A stretch of 64,000 nucleotides of DNA, taken from Polytrichum commune. Lineage: Eukaryota; Streptophyta; Polytrichopsida; Polytrichales; Polytrichaceae. This document shows positions 3,482 through 54,055 of the stretch, piece after piece; the stretch's first letter is position 1; each line of letters starts with the position of its first letter. The notes below the pieces were generated by a model, which saw only the letters and a list, made by a program, of their open reading frames with translations, was not told the DNA's origin and searched no databases. Position numbers and translations under genes: made by a program. The DNA lies in NCBI GenBank assembly GCA_950295325.1, contig OX485807.1:9143001-9207000 (forward strand), in the 5' to 3' direction.

Positions 3482-3926
3482 TTGGACTTTATATGAATTT
3501 TTTAGAACCAAAAAAACCGAGACTATGTCCAAACTTCCAAAAACTAGTGAAAAAATATAGATTCAAAGGGAACAGCGTAGAATTGCGACCATATACTTTG
3601 TGGCAGTAGAAATATTATTGCATATTCATGTAGAGGACTTCATTACCTATCCATGGATACCAAGAACTCATTTTTTGGACTTCATATGAATTTTTGAGAG
3701 CCAAAAAACCGAGACTATGTCCAAACTTCCAAAAACTAATGAAAAAATGTAGGTTCAAAGGGAACAGCGTAGAATTGCGACCATATACTTTGTGGCAGTA
3801 GAAATATTATTGCATATTCATGTAGAGGATTTCATTACCTATCCATGGATACCAAGAACTCATTTTTTGGACTTCATATGAATTTTTGAGAGCCAAAAAA
3901 CCGAGACTATGTCCAAACTTTCAAAC
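3482..3926. repeat. 193-bp tandem repeat, about 2.3 copies
   Basis: The segment starting TTGGACTT at 3482 recurs at 3675 and again, truncated, at 3867, giving a period of 192-193 bp. The copies share long near-identical blocks, such as the run around CCGAGACTATGTCCAAAC and the run around GGGAACAGCGTAGAATTG. Near identity means recent duplication. No coding capacity is evident. Confidence 0.9.
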
Positions 3927-4740: not shown

Positions 4741-5912
4741 CCCACTTTCTCGTGGTCCCCCCCCCACACACTGCGGTAGCAATTGCAGAGGGGGTGATAT
4801 ATATATATATATATAATTGTTTTTGTTTTTTTTTCTTAACCCCGTACTTAAAAAGGTTAATTAAGAAGAAAAACAAAAACAAAAACAAAACAAATGCAAA
4901 TCAAAGGTGTTCATTGGAGAGGCATCCAATACAAATTTGGCAAAAATTTTGCCAAGAATATTTTCATTGATCAAGAATGAAAATACGGAGAATTGGGACA
5001 ATCCGATGCCACCATTCATAAGTGCCTTATGAGAAATTAAGGTATTTGAGTACCAATTCAAAAATTGGCAAATATCGTGGGAGGAGTTCGTGGGGGCATC
5101 TAGGAACACGCGGAAGGCGTGGGATTGCGGTGCACGTGCAAGTGGCTTATTTATCCTCCGCATCAATTTAGACGAGGTACTTAGCATCGAAGGGTGTTTT
5201 TTTTTTTTTTTGGGGGGGGTTCAAAGAAACATAGGAGTATTTTTAAATTCTTTGGGGGGCAAGTTTTAGGCGTTGGAATTTATTTGGGAGTTGTTTAGGG
5301 ATTTCCGAAAGGTTCAAAAAATTGGCATATAGAATCACATTCGACTTAACAAGATAATTGTTAAGGACGAATTGTATTTAACAACACATATTTCATGGAT
5401 TTTGGGGAGGAGAGGATTATTATGTTGTAGCGGGAGATGAGAGATGTGCATAGGTGCCATTTTCTTTTCATGGCAACAAAAAACCCTCATTTTGTACTAT
5501 CAATCACAGGCGGGTGCCGGTTGGATGCGGTCAATTTCAATTTCTACTTAAGTATTGTTTAGAGAAGATGATATGGTTATGAAAATTGCATTGTTTTCTA
5601 TCTTTTGTTTTAGTATCTTCCTCCGTGGCGGGCTGTATTGCTGGTAGTTGTCAGCATTGCTCATTTCATGTTGTATTAGTTTGTGATAGGGTTTTGTGGG
5701 GGTGAGGTCGGAGTAATGACCGACGGGACCCTTGTGTGTGCACCAAGTGAGTGGTGTTTGTATTCCCTTATGGTGAGGCTGGATTGATGACCAGTAGACC
5801 ATAAGTTTGGTGGTGTTTGCAGGTGCATGTTGTGTTTCACCTTTTGACCATTTACCTTGACACTACATTAATTTAGGTTGTTGGCTCCAGTGACCGAATT
5901 CATTGCGGGTTC
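4741..5912. other. Low-complexity and leader region before the retroelement Gag start
   Basis: The stretch has a TA microsatellite (about 4798-4816), A-rich and T/G homopolymer runs (about 5199-5219) and otherwise anonymous sequence. A 5' LTR and primer binding site of the downstream Ty3 element should lie here. I could not find a matching direct repeat downstream of the element, so no LTR boundary is claimed. Confidence 0.4.
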
Positions 5913-6039
5913 ATGGTTACAACTCGGAGCCAACATTATCGTTCTCCGTCTCCGGCATCATCGGAAGGTCAATCCTCAGACCTCTTGGATGTTAAACTAG
6001 TGGTAGCACCCAACGAGGCTTTTCAGCCTACTTCGGCGT
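5913..6039 (+). pseudogene. Gag N-terminus, interrupted
   Basis: The ATG at 5913 opens a frame beginning MVTTRSQHYRSPSPASSEG, a basic, Ser/Pro-rich start typical of plant Ty3/gypsy Gag. The frame is cut at about 6040 by the first LTR-like insertion, and the rest of Gag resumes after it. It belongs to the retroelement and is not a host gene. Confidence 0.65.
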
Positions 6040-6990
6040 TGTCGCAACCCTTGCTAGCCCCCTTGACCATCTTGCCAATTTTCATTCCTAGCAAAGGTTA
6101 CGAGTGCTAACCCTTCGCATTCCGCCATGCTAATGGTTAGCTCTTCCTACCCCGGACCTATAGTTCATAGGAGGGAACCATCCCTCCTACTTTGCTTTCG
6201 AAACTCACCCCTTAATCGGTAACCCATTTCCCCAATGTGGACTTCCATCCATGGAAGTCCAATCCTATGTTGATCATCGCATTGCCGGAGCAACACTACA
6301 ACAACCCGAAGCGTACTAGGCAATTATGGCCTCACAATGGCCCAAAGCCCATGGAGGCCTTGCTGTTCGGCCTCGGGTGGGTGAGGCCACACCACCTCAC
6401 CCATATAAGCCTCTAGGACTCTACGCGGGGCCCCTTCCCCACCGTCAAGAGACCTCTTGTCTCTCCACCAAGAATTGGGGCCAAGTAGACATTTTCCCTT
6501 AGCTGCTGGGCCTAGAAGCCCCCAGCAAGTTCAGACCATCATAACTTCCTTGTATGATGTTTGATTCCAACAACCAACCACTCCATCTCCATCTACGCAA
6601 CACGTAGATGCCGATGGACTCCTCTTTTGCCCCATTCAGGCAAGTATTGAGGAAGTTAGGCCTGTTAGAACCTTGGCAATCCCGGGAATCACTCCCAGAC
6701 ACTGCTGCACCAGGGCGCTGTCCCGGAACAATGCCCCACTCAAATTGCCATAACTCCTAGCTCACACCTCCGATTGAGGTGTTCTTGAGCAATCTAGAAT
6801 CACCACACCATGAGCTACGCATAGCTTATGGCCTTACCCTTGTGACTCCTAGTCTTCGTGGGTGGGAGACGTTCCCAACGCTCGGGGCCCTCACCCACAC
6901 TAGGATCACTTGGACCCTCTCACCAACGGCGCCACAAGTCCCGGGTGTCACTCCGGGGTCCCCCTTGTGCCCATGGTGTTTTGGGCATTG
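6040..6990 (-). mobile_element. LTR-like insertion in Gag, inverted relative to the second copy
   Basis: The sequence from TGTCGCAACCC at 6040 to about 6990 is the reverse complement, with scattered mismatches, of 13603-14575. The similarity stops abruptly at 6040: the sequence before it (ending CTTCGGCGT) does not match the flank of the other copy. Orientation is given relative to that copy. The far end is eroded beyond GGGCA near 6978, so no target duplication can be shown. Short frames inside are not coding, because the same frame exists in both copies only through sequence identity. Confidence 0.75.
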
Positions 6991-7659
6991 TCATGCATGA
7001 AAATTTAATAGGTAATAGGTTACTAGTAGATCGTTTAAGCCTCAAGAAGCCATGGCGAAATGCCCATACTATAGGCATGATCAAGCAACGGTTCATTGGT
7101 GGTTAGGTGAGTGAGTAGTCTTCTTGGAAACACTTCTTGTTCTTGGACCTCATGCACATGGGCCGGTTCTTGGAGGCGAGATGAATAAAGGGGGAGATAG
7201 CGAGTTCATTTGGGGGTGAGAGTTGAATGAGAGACGCAAACATGTTGGAGTGGGGACTTTGTTTGGCGTAATAAAGTTAGTGAAGAAATTATGAGAATCG
7301 TATTTTGTTCAATGTTGGCCCGAGTATGTAAGTGATTTTTATGGAAAGGTCAAGAGTTGAGAATGATAATGAATGGTGTTTGAATTTCTATGAAGTCCTT
7401 AGTGTTATGGCGCTTAGTGCATAAGTAATCCCGGCGAAATCTTCCGGTATTTCATCACTCCTCATGGAGAGGTGCGCGACAGGCGTGGAGGACTGTCACT
7501 CAGTCTCACGTCCTTTGACGAGATGGAGAAGGAGACGCAAGGCGGCATCCGGGACTGATTTTCCGGTCGAGCGGGGACCAATTCCCTACAAGATTTGAAA
7601 ATTCGGTTCAGGACATGGATGAGGAAGAAACGTCAACACAGTCGCAGTTTCAATAACTG

Positions 7660-8870
7660 ATATGCATTCGAGTTATTACCCCAACATTTGGAGTACAAGG
7701 CGCTCCAGATTTATGAGCAATGGAGGGATGCTCATTGGATGGAGCTACGCCAGGTGGAGCAGTATTGGGAAACTCCGGTGGAGTTGGTTTCCGCATTAAA
7801 TGAAGGCGCAACTTCCAGTTTATTTGCCGCTCCTGTAGTGAAGCCGGAGTAAGCCGAGGGCATCGTTGTGGTCGATGTGGAGGGAAGTTTTCCCAGTGGG
7901 CTTAAAGATTAGGCTTCCGCGTCTACGAGTACGTCGAGTCCGAGTCTTCTACTCTCTCGGTATGCCCAGGCTACCCATACGGCATTAGCCTCTTTAGGGG
8001 CTCCGCGTGATTTTGATCCTATGCAGGAATTCTAATTCCATTTGGAGGAGGAATATGGAGGTTTCCACCGATATCAAATGCAACGGATCCAAGGTTTATG
8101 ACGGGAGAAAGATGATACACCTCGTACCATGTACACGAGGTTGGCGAGGTTTTCCAGGGAATATGGAGATGTTTTCGTAGGTAGTCAGTTGGTGAAGGTC
8201 TTTTTGTCAAAGATTGACAAACGCCTCATTGACTTAAGGCTGCCCATGATCATCATGGATTATAGTGGCCGGACGACACTTGCAGAGGCTTTTGCCATTG
8301 TTGAGCAGTCTGATCGTGTCTTCTGTCAGCACGATGCCACTAACTTGGTGTCTATGTTAGTGGATTCTAGCAAATCCCGGAAGGTTTCGGTTGCGGCTGC
8401 GGGTTTTGCGGAGGCAGAGGTGGACAAGACCTTGTATTGTTGGTCTTGTGGGAGGCGGGCGACGCTAAGAAGGATTGTCCTTCGAAGCAAAGATAAGCCC
8501 AAACCATTGGTAATCCAAAGCGAAAACCATTTGTTCCCGCTAAGGATTCGACAAAGGGGCGGGTAAACAATTACCCAAGCAATTGAAGTGTTCTCATTGT
8601 GGGCGGAACAATCATGCGGTGGAGAACTGCTCCGCTCTCCATCCAGAGAAACGTCATTCTTCCGATCGGAAAAAGGCGTTGGAGGCGAAGATTGGAGCAT
8701 TGGAGAAAATGTTCAAAATTTTGGCGTCATCCGGCCAAATCTTAGACTCGCCGTCCTCATCTAGTGCTAAGGCTAGTTCTTCCACTCCAGATTATTATAT
8801 GTTCGGAGCCTCGGGGGAGGTGGTGAGTTCCGCAGTCATGACAAGTGCTCAATCTGTGTCATGAGCCATG
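7660..8870 (+). pseudogene. Gag capsid and CCHC zinc-knuckle region
   Basis: A degraded Gag can be read mainly in one frame from about 7660, with a capsid-like helical part near 8129-8430 (RTMYTRLARFSREYGD, VKVFLSKIDKRLIDLRLP). Two nucleic-acid-binding knuckles follow. The first (about 8437-8485, CWSC then AKKDC in another frame) is broken by a frameshift. The second, at 8586-8630, is intact as C-x2-C-x4-H-x4-C (CSHCGRNNHAVENC). Several in-frame stops break the capsid, for example just before 7860, 7910 and 8100. In an active element this protein would form the particle and package RNA. The two knuckles just before protease fix its identity as Gag. Confidence 0.8.
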
Positions 8871-9239: not shown

Positions 9240-9782
9240 TGAGCGAGACTTGCCGCAGAGACCATTGCGTCTTTTGACGCACACACCTCATATGATAAGG
9301 GGCCGACGAGGTCTTATGACTCACGAGAATCCGCGGGAAAAGCTTATCTATCTGATTTAGTTGCTAGACCTGCTTGCGAACGCCGCGGCATTCAACCCGG
9401 CTTCGTGCGTATGGTGAATGATACCAAAATTTTGGTGGTCAGTTGGATTGGGGGCAATGCCACTCGGGTTGTCCCCTGTTGTGTGATGATGGATTCAGGG
9501 GCACAACCGGTTATGATCGGCAAGAGGTTTGCCCAGGAGTTGGAGTTGGCGGCCGAAGATTTGGCTCCATGTCTATTCATCATTGTCACATCCATTGGTC
9601 ACGTGGAGCGGGCCACAAGTTATACGCGGGAGCCATTACAGCTTAGCTTCCGCGTGAAGCCCGGAGATCCACCCGTACCTTTTTTTCTTAGGTGTGCGGT
9701 GACGGATACAACCAACTATGACATTTTAGTTGGTCAGCAAGCACTTTTATTCCCTTGGTTTTGGTTTGGACAACTGGATTGA
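9240..9782 (+). pseudogene. Retroelement aspartic protease
   Basis: The frame at 9405-9782 contains the retropepsin active-site signature MDSGAQPVMIG (Asp-Ser-Gly) near 9489. It is followed by the hydrophobic strand region and the closing motif YDILVGQQAL, which matches the flap and Ile-Leu-Gly parts of Ty3-type proteases. Upstream sequence from about 9240 in a neighbouring frame joins Gag to protease. The frame shifts near 9750, where the continuation (LDNWIEEAW) is read in another frame. It would have cleaved the Gag-Pol polyprotein. Confidence 0.8.
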
Positions 9783-10039
9783 GGAGGCTTGGATCTGACT
9801 GGGTTGGTCGGCTGAAGACGGTAGCATGGAATTTATTCTTGTGGCATTCGCGGCGGCCACGACCATAGCACCATTATCCATGGGTTTTGGATGTGCTGCT
9901 ATTGTGGACACATTGCCTTATGGTTCCGCATTGTTGAAGGAATCATTAGCATTCATGGGAAGTATAGACGATCAGCGGGATATAGCACCTAAGGGTACAT
10001 TGGTGCGTCATCCCAAGAATTCCCTTCTTCCCTAGCACG

Positions 10040-11119
10040 ATTTCGCCGAACTATTCCGGAGGTGTGAAGACATTGTCCTCTCTCACACTCCTAGTCATAC
10101 GGGATGCCCCATCGGCATTGGCACATCCCATTTTGTGGCGGCCGCCAAACGCGGGGATTACTTTGGTGGAATTGTTTGGGGGCATCGGGATGGAATTGGC
10201 GGCCGTGTTGAAAGTTGGATTCACCGTTCGATAGTACATCTATGTCAACAACAGTCCTATCTCCACCCGTGTGGCGTGTCACCATTTACACCAGTTGATG
10301 GTATTGTACCCAGAGCAGCTTCATCCGATTGCCATCCGTGGGTGCTTTGGACGTCTTCCTTGTGATGTTACACTTATCAGCGAGAAGGACTTGCGAAGGT
10401 TGGGCCTCGTTGATCTGGTGATTGCGGGATGGCCATGCCAGGGCCATTCACGTGCTGGAGCAGGCCGAGGTCTAGAGGATCCCAAGTCTAGTCTATTTTG
10501 GGACCTCATCCGCCTCATGCAGTGGTGGTTTTCCCACCAACCTTTCCCTCTAGGGTATATCTTCGAGAATGTACCTTTGTTGGGAGACTCTCGGGACAAG
10601 GTGTTGGAAGGCGGTTATTATATTCGTCAACACCTTGGACATTTCATTTTTATGTATGCCGCGACCATTGGTTCTTATGCCTACTGACCTTGGTAGATTT
10701 GGACCAATCTTGCACGGTCATCTTCTTTAGCTGCAACATTTTCTGCAGTGCCTCTACCTTTTGATCAGAAGGTGGATGACATCTTGGATCCAAACCGGAC
10801 CTCTTTACCGGTTGTTCGAGATGATTTACCCCTGTTGGCATTGGTCAACAAAGTGGAGGCACCACGGAGGGCCTTTCCCACCTTTATGACGTTTCCACAG
10901 TCATTCGCATTCCGCGATCGGGGGCCGGGTATGGTGTGGGATGCTCATACCAAAACCCACACCGAACCATTGGCTGACGAACGGGAACGTGCCATGGGAT
11001 TCCGCACTGGCACCACCGCAACTCCTAGCCTTACTGAGGGGCAACGATGCTTCGTGTTGGGCCAAACCATAGATCTTCATACCATGGTGTGGACTGTTGG
11101 TTTATGCCTTGCATTGTAA
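10040..11119 (+). pseudogene. DNMT3-like cytosine-C5 DNA methyltransferase domain of the retroelement
   Basis: A single frame, broken only by stops, holds the ordered motifs of a C5 methyltransferase. These are motif I at 10166-10191 (VELFGGIG, AdoMet binding), motif IV with the catalytic Cys (IAGWPCQGHSRAG), motif VI (IFENV), and a decayed motif equivalent to RxRxxW in DNMT3 near 10685-10705 (IWTNL). A C-terminal ERERAMGF box at about 10979-11000 and a final GQTIDLHTMVW helix follow. Order and spacing resemble DNMT3 more than DNMT1 or the circularly permuted DRM type. The catalytic Pro-Cys and the motif VI Glu are intact. Stops lie at 10232 (TAG), 10685 (TGA) and 10694 (TAG). The domain sits between protease and reverse transcriptase in the same strand and context, so it belongs to the element rather than being a host gene. 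It cannot make a full protein here. Confidence 0.88.
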
Positions 11120-11410
11120 CGACATCATGGTGACCAGTTGTTGTCTCTGGAGGCAGAGGATTTGGTCAGGGGGCACATCGTTCCACATCCATGGAGGAAG
11201 GAATTGAGGTCACGGTTGGAGAAGCCGAACGAATCTTTTGATTCGAGCAGCAGGTCATGGAGGAGCTTTTATACTGCTTTGGCTTCTTCACCTCCGGTGG
11301 TGGCTTCATCATCACATATTGGTAGTGATGAAAAAATGATGAACTCTATTGCTAGCACGGAGGTTGGGGGCATGGTTAATGCCCCTTCCTCTCAGTAGTA
11401 GTTAGAGTCC
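11120..11410 (+). pseudogene. Linker between methyltransferase and reverse transcriptase
   Basis: A polyprotein linker continues in the retroelement from the methyltransferase to the RT. It has a basic Arg/Glu-rich part (about 11170-11235) and a Ser-rich low-complexity part (about 11240-11390, with SSSRSW and ASSPPVVASSS). No catalytic motif is seen. It probably separates the two enzymatic domains and ends with stops at 11396-11401. Confidence 0.5.
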
Positions 11411-11869
11411 ATGCCAGCACTAGGTGGCTCCCCTTTGGTGGAGAGGGAGACCACAACGTTTGATGATTGGCCATTGGAATTGGGCCCTCATCTCACTGGT
11501 GCTGAGGCACGGAAACTAAGAGCATTTATTCGCTCATACCATAGGTGTTTTGCTTTTAGCCTCCAAGATCTTGAAGGTTATAAAGAAAAATCCATCCACA
11601 TTGATAACGTGATCATTTTCAGCAAGACATTACAGGAGCATGTAAGACATTTTCAAGCCGTTTTTGAGCGGTTACGGCAGTGGAGATTGCATTTGCATCA
11701 TGGCAAGTGTAAGTTTTTCCATGACCGACTAGCATATCTAGGCCATATAATTATTCTAGGAGGTCTTGGAGTGCAGCAAGCTAAGGTGGACGCCTTGCAA
11801 AAGATTCCGGCACCGGTCGATGTGCCGAGACTTCGTGCTTTATTGGGCTTGGCGAATTACTATCGTTGA
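11411..11869 (+). pseudogene. Reverse transcriptase with its catalytic core deleted
   Basis: The start (HLTGAEARKLRAFIRSYHRCFAF) matches the segment just before Ty3/gypsy RT. About 60 residues in, it jumps from SLQDLEGYKEKSI directly to HIDNVIIFSK, the region around the YIDD box. The conserved fingers and palm, with the first catalytic Asp, are missing. The remaining part (FHDRLAYLGH, QAKVDALQKIPAP, LRALLGLANYYR) is the thumb and connection of Ty3 RT. In the YIDD box the sequence is HIDN, so a second catalytic Asp is changed. The frame ends at a TGA (11867) where the next residues continue as FVKNFSLIAKPLT in the same frame. The enzyme could not work. Confidence 0.88.
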
Positions 11870-12465
11870 TTCGTTAAAAACTTTAGCTTGATTGCCAAGC
11901 CTCTCACCATTCTCACGAGCAAGGACCAACCTTGGATTTGGGGTCGTGAGCAACAATATGCATTTGAGACATTGAAGCAGAAACTGGGTACGGCTCTAGT
12001 GCTTCGACGTCCAGATGTCTCCAAATCTTTCCAGTTGCATATGGGCTGGAGCTCATTGGGTTTGGAAGCAGTTGTCACTCAGAATGATGACTTTGGTCGG
12101 GAGCATGTTGTTGCTTATGCGTCGCAAAGCAACAACACGGCGGAGGCCAATTATTCGTCTTATGAGAAAGAAACATTGGCGCGGTGTGGACTATTGCCCA
12201 TTTCCGGCCAAATATTTATGATCAGCGTTTTACTTTGGTGACTGACCATCAACCGTTACGGTGGCTCATGGAGTCGGATAAGCTTACTGGCAAGCTCGTC
12301 AGATGGGCTTTGTTGCTCCAGGAGTATGACTTTGAGGTGGTGCACCGTGTTGGAATTACCAACCTGAATGCAGATGGACTTTCACGCAATCCAAGTCCTT
12401 CGGATGAGGACTTTACCCGGGCCAGGTGGCCTGGAGATTGTGATCGAGAGGCGGTTCCAGGTTGA
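11870..12465 (+). pseudogene. Retroelement RNase H domain
   Basis: After the stop at 11867 the frame continues with the RT-RNase H connection (SLIAKPLTILTSKDQPW) and RNase H. The first catalytic Asp region, normally T-D-x-S, reads HMGWSSLGLEAVVTQ, so the Asp is replaced by Gly. Later parts are YASQSNN and the NYSSYEKE block with its Glu. A frameshift near 12175 moves to the next frame, where TDHQPLRWLM and LLQEYDFEVVHR continue, ending with DGLSRNPS. The frame stops at 12463. This is Ty3-type RNase H, which would remove the RNA template. Confidence 0.85.
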
Positions 12466-13665
12466 CACGCGACTAGTTACCTCACCTTATTTTCTGGTGC
12501 GGTTGTTGAGGTTCCGATACAGAGCTCGGATGATGAGACTGATCGACCTCAAAGTATTGCGGATATATGGGAAGATCTTCCCGTACTGTATAAGCTTCAT
12601 CAGGGGACCTTTCTTTCGTCTACATCGACAATGGAAAGGGACAAAATTAGACATCAAATAACAAAGTTCCGTTGGGAGAACAGTTTTTTATTTCGATTAT
12701 GGTCGGATGGGACAAGGCATATTGTCCCTAGACCGGATCAAAGGGCCTCCTTGGTGCGACAAGTGCACGAGGAACTTGGCCATTTTGGCATACGCAAGAC
12801 ACATTCAATGTTGCATGGCCAATATTCGTGGATTGGCATGTATCAACAGGTAGTTGCTTATGTCGGGAGGTGTGAAGTTTGTGACCTAGTCATGTCTAGC
12901 TTTAACACCTTGTCACCTCAGTTACAGTCCTTACCTATCATGGAATTGGGCTACTGTTGGTCGTTGGACTTTGCGGGACCGTTGGTTGTTACGTCACGTG
13001 GAGCAAAGTATGTGTTGGTGATGGTGGAGCATTTTAGCAAGTGGATTAAGCTTGTTGTTTTACCCCAAAACTCTACAGAGTTGGCCGCGGCCGCCTTTCT
13101 GGATCGTGTGTTGGCATGTTTTGGAGCATTGGCTAAGGTATTGACGGACCAAGGGAGGGAGTTCCTCGGTGCTTTTGAGGAGTTGTGGAGTAAGGCGCTC
13201 ATAGATCACCGCACCACCTCTCGGGATCATCCGGAGGCGGATGGCTTGGCTGAACGGGTTGTTCAGACAACCAAACGTGGCTTGAGGAAATATGAATTAC
13301 TTCGGGGGAGCCATCGGGATTAGGACCTTATGTTGCCTTGGATTGCTATGGACTATCGATTTAGTAGGCAAGCCTCTTTGACGTCCTACAGCCCGTATCA
13401 ATTGTTGTATGGACGTGAGCCTATACTCCCGAGTTCTATTCGGGAAAAGCTAGCTCATGTTGTGAACTTGGATGATCCAAACATTTGGACAGAGTGTTTG
13501 CAAGATTGGGCTCAATTCTTCCAGAGGGCCATACCTATGGCCATGGAGAATCTGTCCATTGCTCAGCACCGTGACACATTGCGTTATGCACGCATTCGTA
13601 GTTGTGCGCACCTCTCCATGAGGAGTGCCCGAAACACCATGGGCACAAGGGGGACCCCGGAGTGA
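12466..13665 (+). pseudogene. Retroelement integrase, interrupted at its C-terminus
   Basis: An HHCC zinc-binding domain (VHEELGHFGIRKTHS, then CEVCD) precedes the catalytic core. The three acidic residues are visible: Asp in WSLDFAGP (12967), Asp in LTDQGREF (13147) and Glu in ADGLAERVV (13252). A spacing of about 35 residues between the last two fits the integrase fold. A TAG at 13321 (in the run HRD-stop-DLMLPW) splits the frame. The C-terminal part (SYSPYQLLYGREP) is typical of Ty3 integrases. At 13603 the reading frame is cut by the second LTR-like insertion and resumes at about 14581 with YQPQLRRFRQG. Confidence 0.9.
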
Positions 13666-14575
13666 CACCCGGGACTTGTGGCGCCGTTGGTGAGAGGGCC
13701 CAAGTGATCCTAGTGTGGGTGAGGGCCCCGGACGTTGGGAATGCCTCCCACCCACGGAGACTAGGAGGCACAAGGGTAAGGCCATGAGCTATGCGTAGCT
13801 CATGGCGTGGTGATTCTAGAATGCTCAAGAACACCTCAATCGGAGGTGTGAGCTAGGAGTTATGGCCATTTGAGTGGGGCGCTGTCCCGGGACAGCGCCC
13901 TGGTGCAGCAGTGCCTGGGAGTGACTCCCGGGACTGCCAAGGTTCAAAGAGGCATAACGTCCTCATAAATTGCCCAAATGGGGCAAGTGAGGAGTCCATT
14001 GGCATCTACGTGAAACGTAGATGAAGATGGAGTGGTTGGTTGCTAGCCTCGGACATCATACAAGGAAGTTATGATGCTCTGAAGGTGCTAGAGGCTTCTT
14101 AGCCCAGCGGCTAAGGGAGAATGTCCACTTGGCCCCAACTCTTGGTGGAGAGACAAGAGGTTGGTTGACGGTGGGGTAGGGGCCCCGTATAGAGTCCTAG
14201 AGGCTTATATGGGTGAGGTGGTGTGGCCTCACCCACCCGAGGCCGAACGGCACGGCCTCCATGGGCATTGGCCCAATGTGAGGCCATAGTTGCCTAGTAT
14301 GGTTCAGGTTGTTGTAGTGTTGCTCCGGCAATGCGATGATCAACATAGGATTGGACTTCCATGGATGGAAGTCCACATTTGGGAATTGGTTACCGATTAA
14401 GGGGTGAGTCCCGAAAGTAAAGTAGGAGGGTTGGTTCCCCTCCTATGAACTATATGGTCCGGGGTAGGAGGAGCTAACCATTAGCATGGCGGAATGCGAA
14501 TGGTTAGCGCTCGTAACCTTTGCTAGAATTGAAAATTGGCAAGATTGTCAAAGGGGACTAGCAAGGGTTGCGACA
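13603..14575 (+). mobile_element. Solo LTR inserted in the integrase region, with 5-bp target duplication
   Basis: A 973-bp segment runs from TGTGCGCACC to GGTTGCGACA, that is, TG...CA termini. It is flanked on both sides by GTAGT (13598-13602 and 14576-14580). The polyprotein reads RYARIRS before it and TYQPQLRRFRQG after it, so the segment interrupts one coding region. No internal region is present, so it is a solo LTR or a very short LTR-like insertion. It is the same sequence as 6040-6990 in the other orientation. No LTR of the host element matches it, so it probably belongs to another family. Confidence 0.85.
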
Positions 14576-14580
14576 GTAGT

Positions 14581-15015
14581 GGTACTTACCAACCTCAATT
14601 GCGGAGATTTCGGCAGGGGAATTATGTTTATCTCCAACGTGAGGCGCCTACGACATTGGATGTTAGGGCGGGACGCATTATCCTTCGGATGAAGGGGGTG
14701 TTGTTGAGTGATTTGTTGTTGTTGGAAGGCAAAGATGGCAGGGAATGTCGCGAGCATTCCAAAAACTGTGCCCCATGTGATCTACCCATTGAGGGTACAG
14801 TTCATTCTGAACTGGTTGTCGTGCCAGAGGGTCTTCCATGTTTTGTGTATGGAGAGAAGAAAGGAGCGGCCACTATGCTCTTGTGTAATCAGTGTCAATA
14901 TGGTTGGCACATGACATGCTTGAGGCCACCCTTAACTTCTCTATCATCTGGACAGTGGAGTTGTCCTCGTTGTCGAGGATCTTCGGTACTTGGTATTTCC
15001 ACCAATCGTACTTGA
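14581..15015 (+). pseudogene. C-terminal Pol extension with PHD finger
   Basis: The integrase tail resumes (LRRFRQGNYVYLQREAP) and continues into a Cys/His-rich module. From about 14839 the sequence gives C-F-V-Y, then LLCNQC, GWHMTC and WSCPRC, the C4HC3 layout of a PHD finger with the typical Trp before the last pair. The second Cys of the first pair is Tyr (codon 14848-14850). A TGT-to-TAT change would explain it, and it would weaken the first zinc site in this copy. PHD fingers bind histone H3 tails. In chromoviruses a chromodomain occupies this place, so the module may steer integration to certain chromatin; that role is inferred. The frame ends at a TGA at 15013-15015. Confidence 0.82.
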
Positions 15016-15743: not shown

Positions 15744-18645
15744 GGATGGGGCTCACATTGCACCCAACCTACATTTCCTTCGAATGACATTTACCACACT
15801 AGTTAGTTACGGAGCAATCTTTCATTATCCATGCCCTTTGGATTGGCATTGGTCCTAGCTGCTTGGCATGACTCCATAGTCAGTTGAGGGGGGGGGGGCA
15901 TGTCGAGGTGTGTTGTTTATGTCTAACTTTGTGTATGTTAGTGGTGGTTGGTATTCGAGCTGCAGTGACATACGATCGCTATTTACACGACAAAATGTTA
16001 CATTGACGATGCTTTTGAAATATGAAGCGGTCCAAAATCATTATTACGAGAATTCTAGGATTTATCTATATCATAAGTCATATAACTGCGGATATTTTAG
16101 GTATTATCAAAGGTGATGACTTTGACCACACATAGAGGTTTTCTACTAGAGACCACCAAAAAAACCATAATAAATATCTATATTTACGTTGGTCTTCATG
16201 ATATCCATATCACTAGAAGAAAATCTTTCTCGTCGGCGAGTTACAAAGATACGCACTACACGATAACACTAACTAATATTTTAATCAAATACGCCTTTTA
16301 TTCTATAATAAACTAAGAGCCCGAGGTAACCTGACAACATTTATACGACAATGCTTTAAATAAATCATTTATGGTTTGAAATCAACTATATTTCAATAAT
16401 AAAACAAACGCATCGTGAGGAATATACGGACCCTTCTCGTCCTTAAGCTCGACTACTCATCGTACACCCGAGCCTTAGACCCGGGGGCTCTCCTAAATTC
16501 TAAATTTAGCATGTTTTTACAACAAGTTCATGAATTAAGGTTTCTACCCCGCCCAATAATATATTGACGGAACTCTAGAAACCTCTAAAGCTTAAATTTA
16601 GTTAAAACTCTCAATAGTTTGAGCTTTGGATAAAAGTTTATCAACTCCAAGTATCGAACTTTTCAAAATTGCAAGTTTGAGCTCTCAACTCAAGCACTAA
16701 GGTAGATGAAGCTAATGGAGACACTCCAACTTTGTGAAATCATCCAGCCGATGGATTCAAGCATTAAAAGCTTAAGCATATTCGCAATTATGAATTATGA
16801 CCAAAGAATTTTAAATTGTTGAAATCAGAGTTCAGGAAGGTGTTGATTTAGGCTTTGGAATCAAAGATCTGTACTTCCCAGTGTCGTGTCATAGAGGGGA
16901 ACTCTTTTATCATTCAATATGGTGTAAGTGGACAACATCATCGGCAATGAAAACCAAGTTTAATGCCAATATTAGATGAATCATGTTTTCTAAAGTGGTC
17001 ACATGTAAAATAATATGTTCTCAAATTGTTTTTTCAATATCAAATACTTACAATACAAGTTGGTTTGCACCTCACAACCACATACCGCCTCCAAATTTGC
17101 TCACCTCACGTACAAAAATCAAGCGTGTTATAGCGAGACGGATAACACTCCTCATTATGGAGGATGATGGGTGTAGTTTGACTTTTGTGAGGGCACCTAA
17201 CTCGAATATCATCAAGGCGGGGGCTAAATTGCCATGTATTACACACCTATAATATTAAATCAACTGTACCGCTAATTAGAACCCTAAATTAGAGGTCCAA
17301 TTAAGGAAGGTCTCCTAATTAGCATGATCTCCTTTAGTATTAAGGGAGCCTAAGATTCAGCTTAATCAATTTTTTGCCAAAAAGAGTCTCACCTAAGAAT
17401 GTTGTGAAGGTAGTGGGCATGATCAGGTTGCCAACCACAACAAGCATTGTAGTGAAAAGATCAGAGTGCACAACCAGGTGCATGCATATAGAATACAAAT
17501 TCATTGTGGTCTCATCCGTAATTTGTTTGATCACTCGAATGACCATCATTTTGGCTACCTCCAAAGTTTAAACTATGCTTATTTCATCTATCAATACAGC
17601 TTATAACTGTAATTTAATTTGTAGTTTCATTCATTGAAAATGTGGAATTTCAGATAGAATATTTCATCACAAAAACAGACAATTTGGTGATTATTTTAAA
17701 CAAAAAATGCTGTCTACGAATAATTATCATATTCTGAGCACAATCTCTCTTCGACTATTATATATATTGTGTTCTTTCTTAAATCCCATGTTACCTGAGG
17801 TGAAATGTAACACATAAATTACTTGCAGTAGCTGATTGAACTCTAGATTAGCATTAGAGACCCTTGAATAAGTCCGGAGGGTTGCTATTAGGATGACCAC
17901 ATGCCACAAATCTGTTGTTTGAAACTTGTGAGACGTTAATGTGGCACAAAAATAATTTACTACTTGACATACAAAGGTCTTGAAACAGCCTGGCGTGGTA
18001 CAACGGTACTTTAGTAGTCCATATCAAAAATAGAGGTAAGTGTCCAGGGTTCGGACGGGGGTCACCAAAACCCAACTGATCAGCAACTCCGTAAACTAAT
18101 CTTAGATTTTGGAACATACAAAACCTCAAGAACAAGATTGTTTGATACTGTTCTTTGAGTCAAGAGCAGACACAATCAGCATCTCCCCTAAACATATCAC
18201 ACCAAGAGCTTGGGAAGAAAATGTTGAGAACTGATTCATGCAAAACTGGTGACAATAACTATACAAGTTGGACAAAATGATACTAAATCCTAATCTTGCT
18301 GCACGAGCACAGGTGGGTGTCTCAATCCAGTGAGAAATGTGGGCGTCTATGTTACGGGGTGGATAAGGAGTCTGCAAAAGAGAGCAACTAAAGCAAATGA
18401 TATAGCTTCAGAATGTCACACTTGTTGTGATTTGCACTTGCTCACCGGCCAGCTAGCTATTCGAGAGGGCTGTATACCTCAATAGAAAAATGTTCACCTC
18501 CACCACATTATGCCTCCACAAAAAGCGTGCAGGGGAGTAGATTAATCCATGTATAGCAGATGCTATAATGGCCAATGTATATCCATTCTCCCTGACTCTC
18601 ATTTGGTGTGTACAAGACTAGGGTCATGTTATTCCATGTCATACT
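15744..18645. other. Intergenic AT-rich DNA 3' of FAS1
   Basis: I find no supported gene here. A poly-G run occurs at about 15888-15898. Short frames (for example 16983-17252) show no domain. If FAS1 had further C-terminal exons they would be read on the minus strand from this region, but I could not recognise a winged-helix sequence. Confidence 0.4.
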
Positions 18646-42178: not shown

Positions 42179-42420
42179 CAGCGTCCGGGGAGATTTTTGC
42201 TGCTCATCGGCGGTCAAAATCCAATCCCAGTGTTTCCAATGGCAACCGGGTTACATGCATATTTATGATCTTCGGTTTTTCTTTCATTATTTTAAGGTAT
42301 ATATTCCATGAATTCTTCTAAAACGATCGGTAAGTTTCCTGAAGACTTCAACTGCAACCGGTTATTTCTCAAACTCAACCGGTTCGTCTGTAACACAGCG
42401 GTCGATTCTCCCTGTTCATT
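42179..42420 (+). repeat. Dispersed AACCGGTT repeat, copy R1
   Basis: This ~240-bp unit recurs at 50105-50347, 50354-50783, 53831-54055 and, inverted, 25171-25348. Conserved parts are the TCCGGGGAG start, the ATCTTCGGTTTT block, CCTCTAAAACGATCGG and two AACCGGTT palindromes about 16 bp apart around TTTCTCAAACTC. Confidence 0.85.
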
Positions 42421-50104: not shown

Positions 50105-50347
50105 CCAGTGACCAGGGAGATTTTTGGGCATAATTGGTCAAGATTCTAGCTAGTGTTTGCAAGTCCCAACCGGTTAAGTTACATGTTGATGACACCCTTC
50201 GGTTTTCCTTTATTAAATCGGGGTATATTCTTCAAATTCCTCTAAAATGATCGGTACTTTTCCTGCAGTCTTGATGAACTTCAACCGGTTATTTCTCAAA
50301 CTCAACCGGTTTATCTGTAACTAACCGCCGGTTCTCCCCCATCATGG
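50105..50347 (+). repeat. Dispersed AACCGGTT repeat, copy R2
   Basis: This copy lies head-to-tail with the next one (R3); each is preceded by GTTACAAACCAGTG. The two AACCGGTT motifs and the CCTCTAAAATGATCGG block are retained. Confidence 0.85.
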
Positions 50348-50353
50348 TTACAA

Positions 50354-50783
50354 ACCAGTGCCCGGGAAGTGTTTGGGCATGTAGAGTTGGTCGAGATCCG
50401 AGTGATTCTAAATCCTACCAGTTAGGTCCGAGATGACCTTAAACTACCGGATGATGGTGGCGAGATACCCAAATCTCAAGGAAGAGGTTGGCGGTTCGAA
50501 TCCCGGCTGTGAAATCTCCTCTCTACTTGACGGAAAACTTGCCAGGTGGTCAACTGCCTCCTGTGCTTTGGCGTTAGCCTGTCGGCCTTCTGTCTCAAAA
50601 AAAAGAAGAGAATCCAGCCAGTTACATGTTGACATCTTCCGGTTTTGCTTTCATTTCATTTGAGATATATTCTTCTATAGATTCCTCTAAAACAATCAGT
50701 AATTCTTCTGAAGTCTTCAACTTCAACCGGTTATTTCTCAAACTAAACCGGTTCATCCGTAACTAACTGCCGGTTCTTCCCGG
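50354..50783 (+). repeat. Dispersed AACCGGTT repeat, copy R3, split by a SINE
   Basis: The copy starts GTGCCCGGGAAG and ends GCCGGTTCTTCC. The SINE at 50425-50610 interrupts it after CCAGTTA; without the SINE its length agrees with the other copies. Confidence 0.85.
50425..50610 (+). mobile_element. tRNA-derived SINE with A-rich tail
   Basis: A 186-bp insertion has a tRNA-type box B (GGTTCGAATCC, 50493-50503) and a box A-like stretch upstream (TGGTGGCGAGATACC). It ends in an A-rich tail (AAAAAAAAG). It is flanked by a 14-bp duplication, AATCCTACCAGTTA at 50411-50424 and AATCCAGCCAGTTA at 50611-50624, with two differences. Uninterrupted R copies show the empty site. It is transcribed by RNA polymerase III if active. 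Confidence 0.85.
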
Positions 50784-52231
50784 ACATAGGTACAAACTGC
50801 AGCTAACTTTAATAAGTAAGGTAAGTGGGTTATGTGGTCACTCATTTTGGTGGTATATCGCATGGCTTGCAGTTAACAACAGACTCGAAAAAGTGGTGTG
50901 TCACAGTAAAATTGTACTATGGATTCAGAATAAGTGGGACCTGTTCAAGGGGGGGGGGAAGAGGAAGGCTAGACATATTTAGGGGGTAAAAAATTGGGGC
51001 TAAGTTTCATTCATTCACCAATTTAAGCTAGGGTGGCCACCTCCAGTATGTGGCAGGGGACGTGGATGTTGGGTGGGATGTGGGTCCATGTAGCTCTGGG
51101 ACTAGTAGTGTCGTAGGCAAGGCTGGCACCACACGGTTTTTACAGTTGGATTCTGCATACATTAGTTTAAAAATAATAATATAAAAACTCAATCATTTGA
51201 GATCTAGCAAAATCTGGGTTTACGTGGTTCTATTGCAGATGAGTTGAGATTATAGGATAGAGGACCCAATGTCCGCCAATGGTGGTGTTGATTGCCAAAT
51301 GCTGAGTGCTCGAATAAAACCATGATTTAATTCGCAGAGATCGGATTTTTTTGCATCAAAACCCAAAACCCAATACATCGACCGAAAAAAGTTGGGTTTT
51401 TCCCACCCTTGGTCGTAGGAAAGTGACGGGTCAGAGATCCATTTGGCTTAGGTTTTAGACGCTCGCAGATACGCAAGACAGGAATTGCATGTAGCCTTGC
51501 TTCGGAGACTGGCAAATTGTGCCGGTGTTAAAAAAAAATTAATTTTTTGCATAGTCAGGGAGGTTGTGAGCCTTGTTGTGGTGCCATGCTGGTGTGTAAT
51601 GTTTTTTTAAACAATCTGTGTGATTGCTAGTGTTTGTTAGGACACCTTCGAGAGTTGAAGTTGTATCGTAGTCAACCCTAACGGTTTTATAAGTTGCCAA
51701 AGCTCTCATGCAGGTTCTATCTATTTCACCCACCAAATCTCTGGAGCAACATGAGTCCTCGTAACAAATCATGAACTCCCTTTGTAAATGTGCTGGAAGA
51801 AATGTGATGGATGAGAACAAATTGCTTTATGTTCGAATAAAACTCTAGTCAATTGCCTATCTAAAATCTATTGTATCCTAATTGTCAAGCTTGTTACAAA
51901 TGCTATAATACATGATTGGTACATTACTTGATGGTTGTGGTATGTGCTTTTGCTTGGGTTTCTTAGATGGGAGCTACAATATGCATAAATGGGGTAAAAT
52001 GAGATGAGTTTCACTTGGTTGTCTGAGGCGGAGGTTTGCGCGCTTTGTGTCTATGAGAACATGCTTATTGCAACGGTATTGCGGAGTGAGAGCACGGGTG
52101 TCTAAGCCTCAACTCTTTTTTTTTGAAAAACTAAATTATGTACATTTGTACAAGATGATATGTCTTTTTTTGGTGCTGTCTTCTACAAATGTGTTTTGGG
52201 TGGTGCATACTTATTAATAGAAATGCCTTCA

Positions 52232-53830: not shown

Positions 53831-54055
53831 AGCAGTGTCCGGGGAGAGTTTGGGTGAAATTGGTCGAGATCCAAGTGTTTCCAAGTCCAACCGGTTACAG
53901 GTTGATAATTTTCAGGTTTACTTTAACGATTTAAAAGTTTATTGTAGACATTCCTCTAAAACGAACATTGATTTGACTTAAGCCTTGAACTTGAACCGGT
54001 TATTTCTCAAACCCAACCTGCTCATCTGTGACGAGCAGTTGGATCTCCCTGTTCG
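53831..54055 (+). repeat. Dispersed AACCGGTT repeat, copy R4
   Basis: The GTGTCCGGGGAGAG start, ATTCCTCTAAAACGA centre and GAACCGGTTATTTCTCAAAC end match the other copies. One of the two palindromes is changed to AACCTGCT. Confidence 0.8.

What the first reader, a model, noticed from the sequence alone, without database searches (positions are those of the whole stretch)
10040..11119. Retroelement carrying its own DNMT3-like cytosine methyltransferase
Seen: motif I (VELFGGIG), motif IV (GWPCQGHS), motif VI (FENV) and a C-terminal ERERAMGF box in one frame, sandwiched between protease and RT of a Ty3 element. Known: captured methyltransferases in retroelements are reported, to my knowledge, from dinoflagellates and Klebsormidium. 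Inference: an element that could methylate its own or host DNA, perhaps to persist in silent chromatin or to limit damage to the host. A land-plant lineage of such elements would be notable.
Basis: partly seen in the sequence, partly recalled or inferred. Interest (0 to 1): 0.92.

Follow-up and report, generated by a model that had tools for sequence, protein, structure and literature searches.

The report
Plant retrotransposon with built-in DNA methyltransferase
A jumping gene in a plant genome carries its own DNA-methylating enzyme, and relatives with the same enzyme occur in a liverwort, in peat moss and in green algae, so genomic parasites of plants have kept a host-type epigenetic enzyme as standard equipment.

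Summary
Window 10151-11116 encodes a C5 cytosine methyltransferase (MTase; PF00145, E 3.8e-12) closest to DNMT3, between protease and reverse transcriptase of a Ty3/Gypsy-type element. This copy is dead: stops, lost motif VIII, a gap in RT, nested insertions. The family is not: 19 of 19 element loci read have gag-PR-MTase-RT-RNaseH-IN, 17 with a PHD finger, and 20 of 20 further copies picked by another site carry the MTase. Both long frames are open in 7 of the 19. The MTase ends the first frame, before an in-frame amber stop in TMV-type leaky context: TAG at 139 of 140 sites, TAA at one. The ends are split direct repeats with 4-bp target duplications, 13 of 13. Proteins named Marchantia, Sphagnum and Closterium share the order; Haematococcus and Monoraphidium elements carry a related MTase between RNase H and integrase. 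The kind is known (KnitGypsy-Dnmt3, 2018), but a 2019 paper says that land plants, "such as tracheophytes", lack it. Most likely role, inferred: the enzyme, made with Gag, methylates the element's own DNA. Activity, readthrough and host species remain untested.

The parts
5371..6039 (+). 5' part of the element (leader and first codons of ORF1); the 5' repeat B1 was not found
   Evidence: 79% identical to L017 1444-2109; ORF1 residues 3-49 at 5901-6041
6040..7481 (.). Insertion that splits ORF1; it holds 6058-6987, an inverted copy of the solo LTR at 13603-14575
   Evidence: Break in the alignment to L017 at 2105-2109; inverted repeats 6224-6987/13626-14389 and 6058-6158/14456-14556
7482..8864 (+). 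gag-like region (decayed)
   Evidence: tblastn with an open ORF1; a zinc knuckle is only weakly matched in one open copy, E 0.0038, below the cut-off
9243..9782 (+). Aspartic protease region
   Evidence: Asp_protease_2 E 0.006, below the curated cut-off; tblastn
10151..11116 (+). DNMT3-like C5 cytosine methyltransferase domain, interrupted by stops at 10232, 10685 and 10694 and followed by one at 11117
   Evidence: PF00145 E 3.8e-12 on 10235-10684; motifs
11396..11398 (+). Position of the conserved in-frame amber codon between ORF1 and ORF2; in this copy the next codon is a stop too
   Evidence: compared with other copies
11402..11869 (+). Reverse transcriptase remnant; about 500 bp present in L017 are missing near 11600
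   Evidence: RVT_1 E 9.1e-10; L017 6269 to 6769 absent
11870..12465 (+). RNase H region, with a frameshift
   Evidence: RT_RNaseH_2 E 1.8e-21; frames
12466..13602 (+). Integrase: H2C2 zinc finger and DDE-type core
   Evidence: Integrase_H2C2 E 1.5e-14, rve E 1.5e-11
13603..14575 (.). Nested solo LTR of another element, TG...CA, with GTAGT at 13598-13602 and 14576-14580
   Evidence: Read; inverted copy on the left; alignment break with 10 shared bases
14576..15015 (+). Integrase C-terminal region and PHD finger (14854-14973)
   Evidence: PF00628 E 2.5e-8; 88% identical to an open ORF2
15901..15992 (+). 3' terminal repeat A; the element ends in TTTACACGACA at 15992, with no B2-A2 behind it here
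   Evidence: the same end in other copies

Best explanation
This is a decayed copy of a young, multi-copy Ty3/Gypsy-type retrotransposon family in a plant. Its first reading frame is gag-protease-MTase and its second is RT-RNase H-integrase-PHD. An in-frame amber codon in a leaky context separates them, so the DNMT3-like enzyme would be made in Gag-like amounts and RT/IN in smaller amounts. The protease would release it inside the particle, where it de novo methylates the element's cDNA, so that the DNA that integrates already carries the host's mark. Shown: anatomy, copy number, conservation of the domain, its catalytic residues and the amber context, purifying selection in one subfamily, target-site duplications. 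Inferred: readthrough, packaging, enzyme activity, cDNA as substrate, and the advantage (not being seen as foreign, or quick entry into tolerated silent chromatin).
For: Domain order in 19 of 19 element loci; MTase in 20 of 20 copies picked by the amber site (19 with 355 or more residues aligned, one with 178). 123 PF00145 matches scored of 353 candidates genome-wide, a lower bound, at least one of them a host DRM gene. TAG at 91 of 92 sites and 48 of 48. DNMT3A is the best solved relative of the MTase profile (E 7e-20; DRM 8e-13, bacterial 2e-7, DNMT2 1e-6, chains called DNMT1 about 2). The AlphaFold2 model (mean pLDDT 78.9) matches DNMT3 entries best. The catalytic Cys is present in 134 of 138 relatives, the other 4 being gapped there. 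MTase pN/pS 0.29-0.31, bootstrap 95% 0.19-0.47, in three A-subfamily pairs that share copies and so are not independent. Repeat pairs are 94.6-100% identical, 9 of 10 above 99%. SymbioDIRS-Dnmt3 enzymes methylate CG in yeast (PMC5890265).
Against: No activity is shown here; the Klebsormidium enzyme gave no methylation in yeast, which its authors call inconclusive. Selection on the MTase is weaker than on RT (pN/pS 0.07 in the A pair, 0.09 between subfamilies), and among young B copies it cannot be told from neutrality (0.53-0.71, intervals reaching above 1). Non-DNMT retrotransposons move in the same kinds of genome (authors' remark). Chlorophyte members carry the MTase between RNase H and integrase, so Gag-level dosage is not universal. 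The amber codon is only inferred to be leaky.
Confidence: 0.5

Rival explanations
1. The enzyme acts on host chromatin after or around integration: with the PHD finger reading histone tails, the element methylates its insertion site and limits its own expression and damage.
For: A PHD finger ends ORF2 in 17 of 19 loci and is found in many algal relatives. Against a young copy the window shows more C-to-T than T-to-C change (13% of CG, 16% of CHG, 11% of CHH sites; ratios 1.5, 2.3, 1.7), while a pair of copies with long open frames (L017, L010) shows ratios of 0.8-1.1; this is expected of methylated silent DNA.
Against: Host enzymes explain such methylation without the element's MTase. The asymmetry is modest and compares single pairs. 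Nothing is known of the protein's localisation.
Confidence: 0.22
2. The domain methylates or binds RNA (genomic RNA or primer) during packaging or priming.
For: DNMT2-like enzymes of the same fold act on tRNA (known); de Mendoza et al. raise RNA as a substrate for the LINE enzyme.
Against: The profile ranks DNMT3 (7e-20) far above DNMT2 (1e-6).
Confidence: 0.08
3. The enzyme defends host and element against DNA viruses or rival elements (the idea of Morozov et al. 2019, PMC6338049).
For: Proposed in that paper for methylase-bearing retroelements (passages).
Against: The same passage argues that such elements were lost in land plants for want of DNA viruses; the Marchantia and Sphagnum proteins do not fit that for bryophytes. 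No data link the enzyme to viruses.
Confidence: 0.05
4. A host methyltransferase fragment landed by chance in one old element.
For: Only that this copy is decayed.
Against: Same place in 39 of 39 copies examined, in Marchantia and Sphagnum proteins, and under purifying selection in the A subfamily. The one host gene met, L026, is DRM-like and not a near relative.
Confidence: 0.005

Closest known systems
KnitGypsy-Dnmt3 of Klebsormidium nitens (de Mendoza et al. 2018, PMC5890265)
   Same: Gypsy-type domains, DNMT3-like enzyme inside the coding region, purifying selection and, in the authors' words, a repeat structure as in DIRS with Gypsy domains.
   Different: Described there within the Pol polyprotein of an alga, in fewer copies than in Symbiodinium. 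Here it is on the Gag side of an amber codon, in over a hundred copies, in a plant element that groups with Marchantia. No sequence named Klebsormidium was among my hits, so kinship was not measured.
SymbioDIRS-Dnmt3 and SymbioLINE-Dnmt of dinoflagellates (same paper)
   Same: DNMT carried by a retroelement; the DIRS enzyme is active on CG in yeast.
   Different: Other element classes (DIRS, LINE); independent capture according to the authors.
DNMT3A/DNMT3B
   Same: Best sequence and fold matches; motif order I-IV-VI-VIII-X, not rearranged; AHRxR motif VIII.
   Different: About 24% identity to DNMT3A in the structural alignment; no PWWP or ADD domain at E 0.01 in four ORFs; part of a polyprotein.
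TMV-type leaky UAG-CARYYA stop codons
   Same: In-frame TAG followed by CAATTA or CAATCA between the two frames.
   Different: Here a retroelement MTase lies upstream of the stop; readthrough was not measured.

Membership tests
C5 cytosine methyltransferase (PF00145) | Profile match above the curated cut-off | tested here: met
   46.7 bits against 22 in the window; 46.1 and 45.5 in two open copies
C5 cytosine methyltransferase (PF00145) | Catalytic PCQ Cys and ENV Glu | tested here: met
   Present in the window and in 14 of 14 ORF1 copies aligned; across relatives Cys 134 of 138 with 4 gaps, Glu 137 of 138
C5 cytosine methyltransferase (PF00145) | Intact motif VIII in this copy | tested here: not met
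   Window has stops and replacements there; 13 of 14 other copies keep AHRPR
DNMT3 subfamily | DNMT3 scores best among solved families | tested here: met
DNMT3 subfamily | Groups with plant and animal DNMT3 in a tree with MET1, CMT, DRM | not tested
   No plant DNMT3, MET1 or CMT sequence was in hand; only a human DNMT3A fragment served as outgroup; the search for a host DNMT3 did not complete
Ty3/Gypsy (Metaviridae) | PR-RT-RNaseH-IN order with rve (DDE) integrase | tested here: met
   PR only weakly matched by Pfam
Ty3/Gypsy (Metaviridae) | Plain long terminal repeats at both ends | tested here: not met
   B1 - coding - A1-GC-B2-A2 instead
Ty3/Gypsy (Metaviridae) | Short target-site duplication | tested here: met
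   Perfect 4 bp in 13 of 13 copies with both ends read (L011; ten; L018 and L025); in the other 6 of 19 loci one or both ends were not found in the stretch
DIRS (tyrosine recombinase) retroelements | Tyrosine recombinase, no target-site duplication | tested here: not met
   rve and no tyrosine recombinase at E 0.01 in four ORFs of two copies; duplications present
KnitGypsy-Dnmt3 lineage | DNMT3 in Gypsy coding region with DIRS-like repeats | tested here: met
   Anatomy compared with the text of PMC5890265
KnitGypsy-Dnmt3 lineage | Common descent of RT and MTase with the Klebsormidium element | not tested
   No hit named Klebsormidium
TMV-type leaky stop | UAG followed by CARYYA | tested here: met
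   TAG CAA TTA and TAG CAA TCA; motif from PMC4132726
TMV-type leaky stop | Measured readthrough | not testable with these tools
   Needs a reporter assay or proteomics

The most novel reading that the evidence does not exclude
One retroelement lineage captured a DNMT3-type enzyme before chlorophytes and streptophytes parted and has kept it ever since as a working part of its particle. The enzyme changed place once (before RT in streptophyte-type elements, between RNase H and integrase in chlorophyte-type ones). In bryophytes the element makes it at Gag level through a leaky amber codon to pre-methylate its own cDNA.
Probability: 0.25. Interest if true: 0.86.

Novelty: new variant of a known kind. 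Interest (0 to 1): 0.72.

Why it matters
Cytosine methylation is a main host weapon against transposons. An element family that carries, preserves and multiplies a de novo type methyltransferase is the reverse of what is expected. Finding it in proteins named Marchantia polymorpha and Sphagnum puts the question into land plants, one of them a genetic model, although a 2019 paper says that land plants, such as tracheophytes, lack such elements (PMC6338049). The two domain arrangements, each one side of both the RT and the MTase tree, suggest an old association and not a rare accident. The amber codon is a concrete, testable clue that the enzyme acts in the particle.

Tried and rejected
Rejected: chance insertion of a host fragment; DRM or CMT origin (ranking; motif order not rearranged); DIRS membership (rve integrase and target duplications).

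Led nowhere: Rfam scan of the window, 0 matches. The only primary report of such elements that I saw is de Mendoza 2018 (abstract and sections 9-11 read). I saw passages of PMC12344493, PMC6338049, PMC6453930, PMC9033089, PMC9477723, PMC9915684, PMC5410703, PMC4132726 and PMC2754532, and a find without hits in PMC7264820; the other papers were seen in listings only. Absence in print is claimed only for these searches of this open-licence library; Repbase and subscription papers were not seen.

The plastid contig C8 holds matK, chlN- and chlL-like genes and rbcL-trnR(CCG)-accD, and L026 is a DRM gene. From recall of plastid gene content this fits a streptophyte that is not a flowering plant; a bryophyte is likely because the element groups with Marchantia. 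A moss with seven chromosomes is a guess from seven large contigs.

Results against my reading: young B copies give MTase pN/pS not different from 1; between the subfamilies synonymous sites are saturated; both trees are 'quick' trees with long rows. Rooted on the DNMT3A fragment, the RT-MT rows form a clade nested among the MT-RT rows, but the root branch is very long. Of 17 MT-RT proteins 12 passed the length filter; of the RT-MT proteins 26 were used (4 named, 22 drawn at random from those with a long RT match), plus two copies of this genome. The amber pattern required exact flanks, so it counts mostly young copies.

Full report
1. Observation. Pfam gives PF00145 with E 3.8e-12 for the open piece 10235-10684. 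The flanks hold a weakly recognised aspartic protease (9243-9782), RVT_1, RNase H, integrase zinc finger and core, and a PHD finger at 14854-14973.

2. State of this copy. From 9986 to 11869 one frame holds stops at 10232, 10685, 10694, 11117, 11396 (the amber site), 11399 and 11867. Motif VIII is lost. About 500 bp of RT are missing near 11600. The element is split by an insertion at 6040-7481 and by a solo LTR at 13603-14575 with GTAGT on both sides; the two share 764 bp in inverted orientation at 91%. Against the young copy L017 the window shows more C-to-T than T-to-C change in CG, CHG and CHH (ratios 1.5, 2.3, 1.7), while L017 against L010 shows 0.8-1.1, so decay by deamination of methylated cytosine is plausible. 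It is a fossil.

3. The family in the same genome. The genome (407.8 Mb, 64 contigs) gave 123 scored PF00145 matches from 353 candidates, a stated lower bound. I read 20 loci of 10 kb. One, L026, is a host DRM gene (DRM2 E 5.6e-52). The other 19 have gag-PR-MTase-RT-RNaseH-IN in that order, 17 with the PHD finger. In seven of these (L015, L017, L019, L020, L021, L022, L024) a first frame of 1356-1386 codons is followed by a second of 1047-1048. Because these loci were chosen through the MTase, I took 20 further copies from amber sites that had no scored MTase match; 20 of 20 carry the MTase in the expected 1.1 kb, 19 with at least 355 aligned residues and one with 178. Two subfamilies exist: A, to which the window belongs (79-92% DNA identity to L017), and B (67-74% over the longer pieces).

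4. The amber codon. The two frames are in the same phase and separated by one TAG followed by CAATTA (A) or CAATCA (B). With the three stop bases left free, the genome has for B 92 sites, 91 TAG and 1 TAA, and for A 48 of 48 TAG; no sense codon was seen. Flanks had to match exactly, so these are mostly young copies. More telling is that the same context is kept in both subfamilies although their synonymous sites are saturated. UAG-CARYYA is the TMV-type leaky signal (PMC4132726, passages); in a plant transient assay the TMV sequence gave 32% readthrough (PMC2754532, passages). Fifteen database relatives of 1228-1451 residues (P0054-P0068) end 29-121 residues after the MTase match with no RT match, and five Marchantia models (P0070, P0071, P0072, P0076, P0077) end 66-81 residues after it. 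This fits the same arrangement; their DNA was not seen.

5. Ends. Copies begin TGTC and end GACA. The order is B1 - coding region - A1 - GC - B2 - A2, with A about 106 bp and B 334 bp (A subfamily) or about 438 bp (B subfamily). Eleven copies of this form have perfect 4-bp target duplications (L011, ten), and so do two copies that end after A1 (L018, L025): 13 of 13 with both ends read; in the other six loci one or both ends were not found. The window copy also ends after A1. These are split direct repeats as in DIRS-type elements, but with an rve integrase and target duplications; de Mendoza et al. describe the Klebsormidium element in like terms. B1 and B2 are 94.6-100% identical in ten copies, nine above 99%, so the family moved recently.

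7. Relatives elsewhere. Protein searches found the same order in entries named Marchantia polymorpha (P0073, P0075, P0078, P0081 with RT in the same model) and Sphagnum fallax (P0087), a protease-MTase protein of Sphagnum troendelagicum (P0039), and MTase-RT-IN in Closterium sp. NIES-53 (P0135), a zygnematophyte. Proteins named Haematococcus lacustris and Monoraphidium neglectum, both chlorophytes, and many unnamed metagenome proteins carry a related MTase between RNase H and integrase. Pfam misses this MTase in the one Haematococcus protein scanned (P0142) and leaves it below the cut-off in Monoraphidium (P0154), which may be why it has been overlooked. Of 91 proteins with both MTase and RT, 16 have MTase wholly before RT (17 by start order). 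In 40 element rows the RT tree and the MTase tree both split cleanly by arrangement (SH-aLRT 99), and in both the two subfamilies of this genome group with Marchantia (98). The catalytic Cys is present in 73 of 73 RT-MT rows, 12 of 14 MT-RT rows (2 gaps) and 49 of 51 rows without RT (2 gaps). Congruent splits suggest long joint inheritance; the relation to host DNMT3 was not tested.

8. What it most likely does. The anatomy puts the enzyme on the Gag side of a leaky-type stop, behind the protease. The simplest reading is that it is made in Gag-like amounts, enters the particle and methylates the element's cDNA before integration. De Mendoza et al. suggested cDNA methylation for the DIRS enzymes and showed CG activity in yeast for them, not for the Klebsormidium enzyme. 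For this family all functional steps are inference.

9. Novelty. The kind is known since 2018. New relative to the papers that I saw: a bryophyte and chlorophyte distribution, high copy number with recent activity, the Gag-side amber arrangement, and two domain orders. Morozov et al. [quoted passage not shown] my finding concerns bryophytes and leaves tracheophytes open. [quoted passage not shown]

10. Host. The plastid contig carries matK, chlN- and chlL-like genes, and trnR(CCG) between rbcL and accD; L026 is a DRM gene. From general knowledge this points to a streptophyte that is not a flowering plant, probably a bryophyte. It was not identified.

Noticed in passing
P0130, P0142, P0154, P0168 and many metagenome proteins of P0090-P0172: Chlorophyte-type elements carry the MTase between RNase H and integrase; motif IV reads WECQDL in 45 of 73 such rows instead of WPCQG.
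   Followed up: partly
window 6058-6987 and 13603-14575: Two copies of one LTR family in inverted orientation sit inside the MTase element; the right one is a solo LTR with a GTAGT duplication.
   Followed up: partly
L017 9497-10044 and ten other loci: The inner A1-GC-B2 junction joins the two element ends with two extra bases, like a circle junction; how such split repeats are copied by an element with an rve integrase is unexplained.
   Followed up: partly
L018, L025 and the window copy: Some copies end after A1 without B2-A2; two of them still have 4-bp duplications, so they are either a second integrated form or the product of recombination between A1 and A2.
   Followed up: partly
ORF1 against ORF2, subfamilies A and B: Gag, PR and MTase differ three to four times more in amino acids between subfamilies than RT, RNase H and IN (pN 0.24-0.25 against 0.06-0.08).
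   Followed up: no
window 50115-50789, 42299-42385, 53866-54025: Stretches about 69-75% identical to the 5' leader of the element (L017 1053-1270), without coding matches; possibly relics of related leaders.
   Followed up: no
window 3499-3882: Direct tandem repeat of 192 bp, two copies, 95% identical.
   Followed up: no
L030-L033: matK-like stretches in the large contigs C1, C2, C3 and C5, two of them full of stops; probably plastid DNA transfers.
   Followed up: no
P0154 2352-2407: The Monoraphidium polyprotein has a Tudor-like match (PF21743, below the cut-off) behind its PHD finger: a second possible chromatin reader.
   Followed up: no
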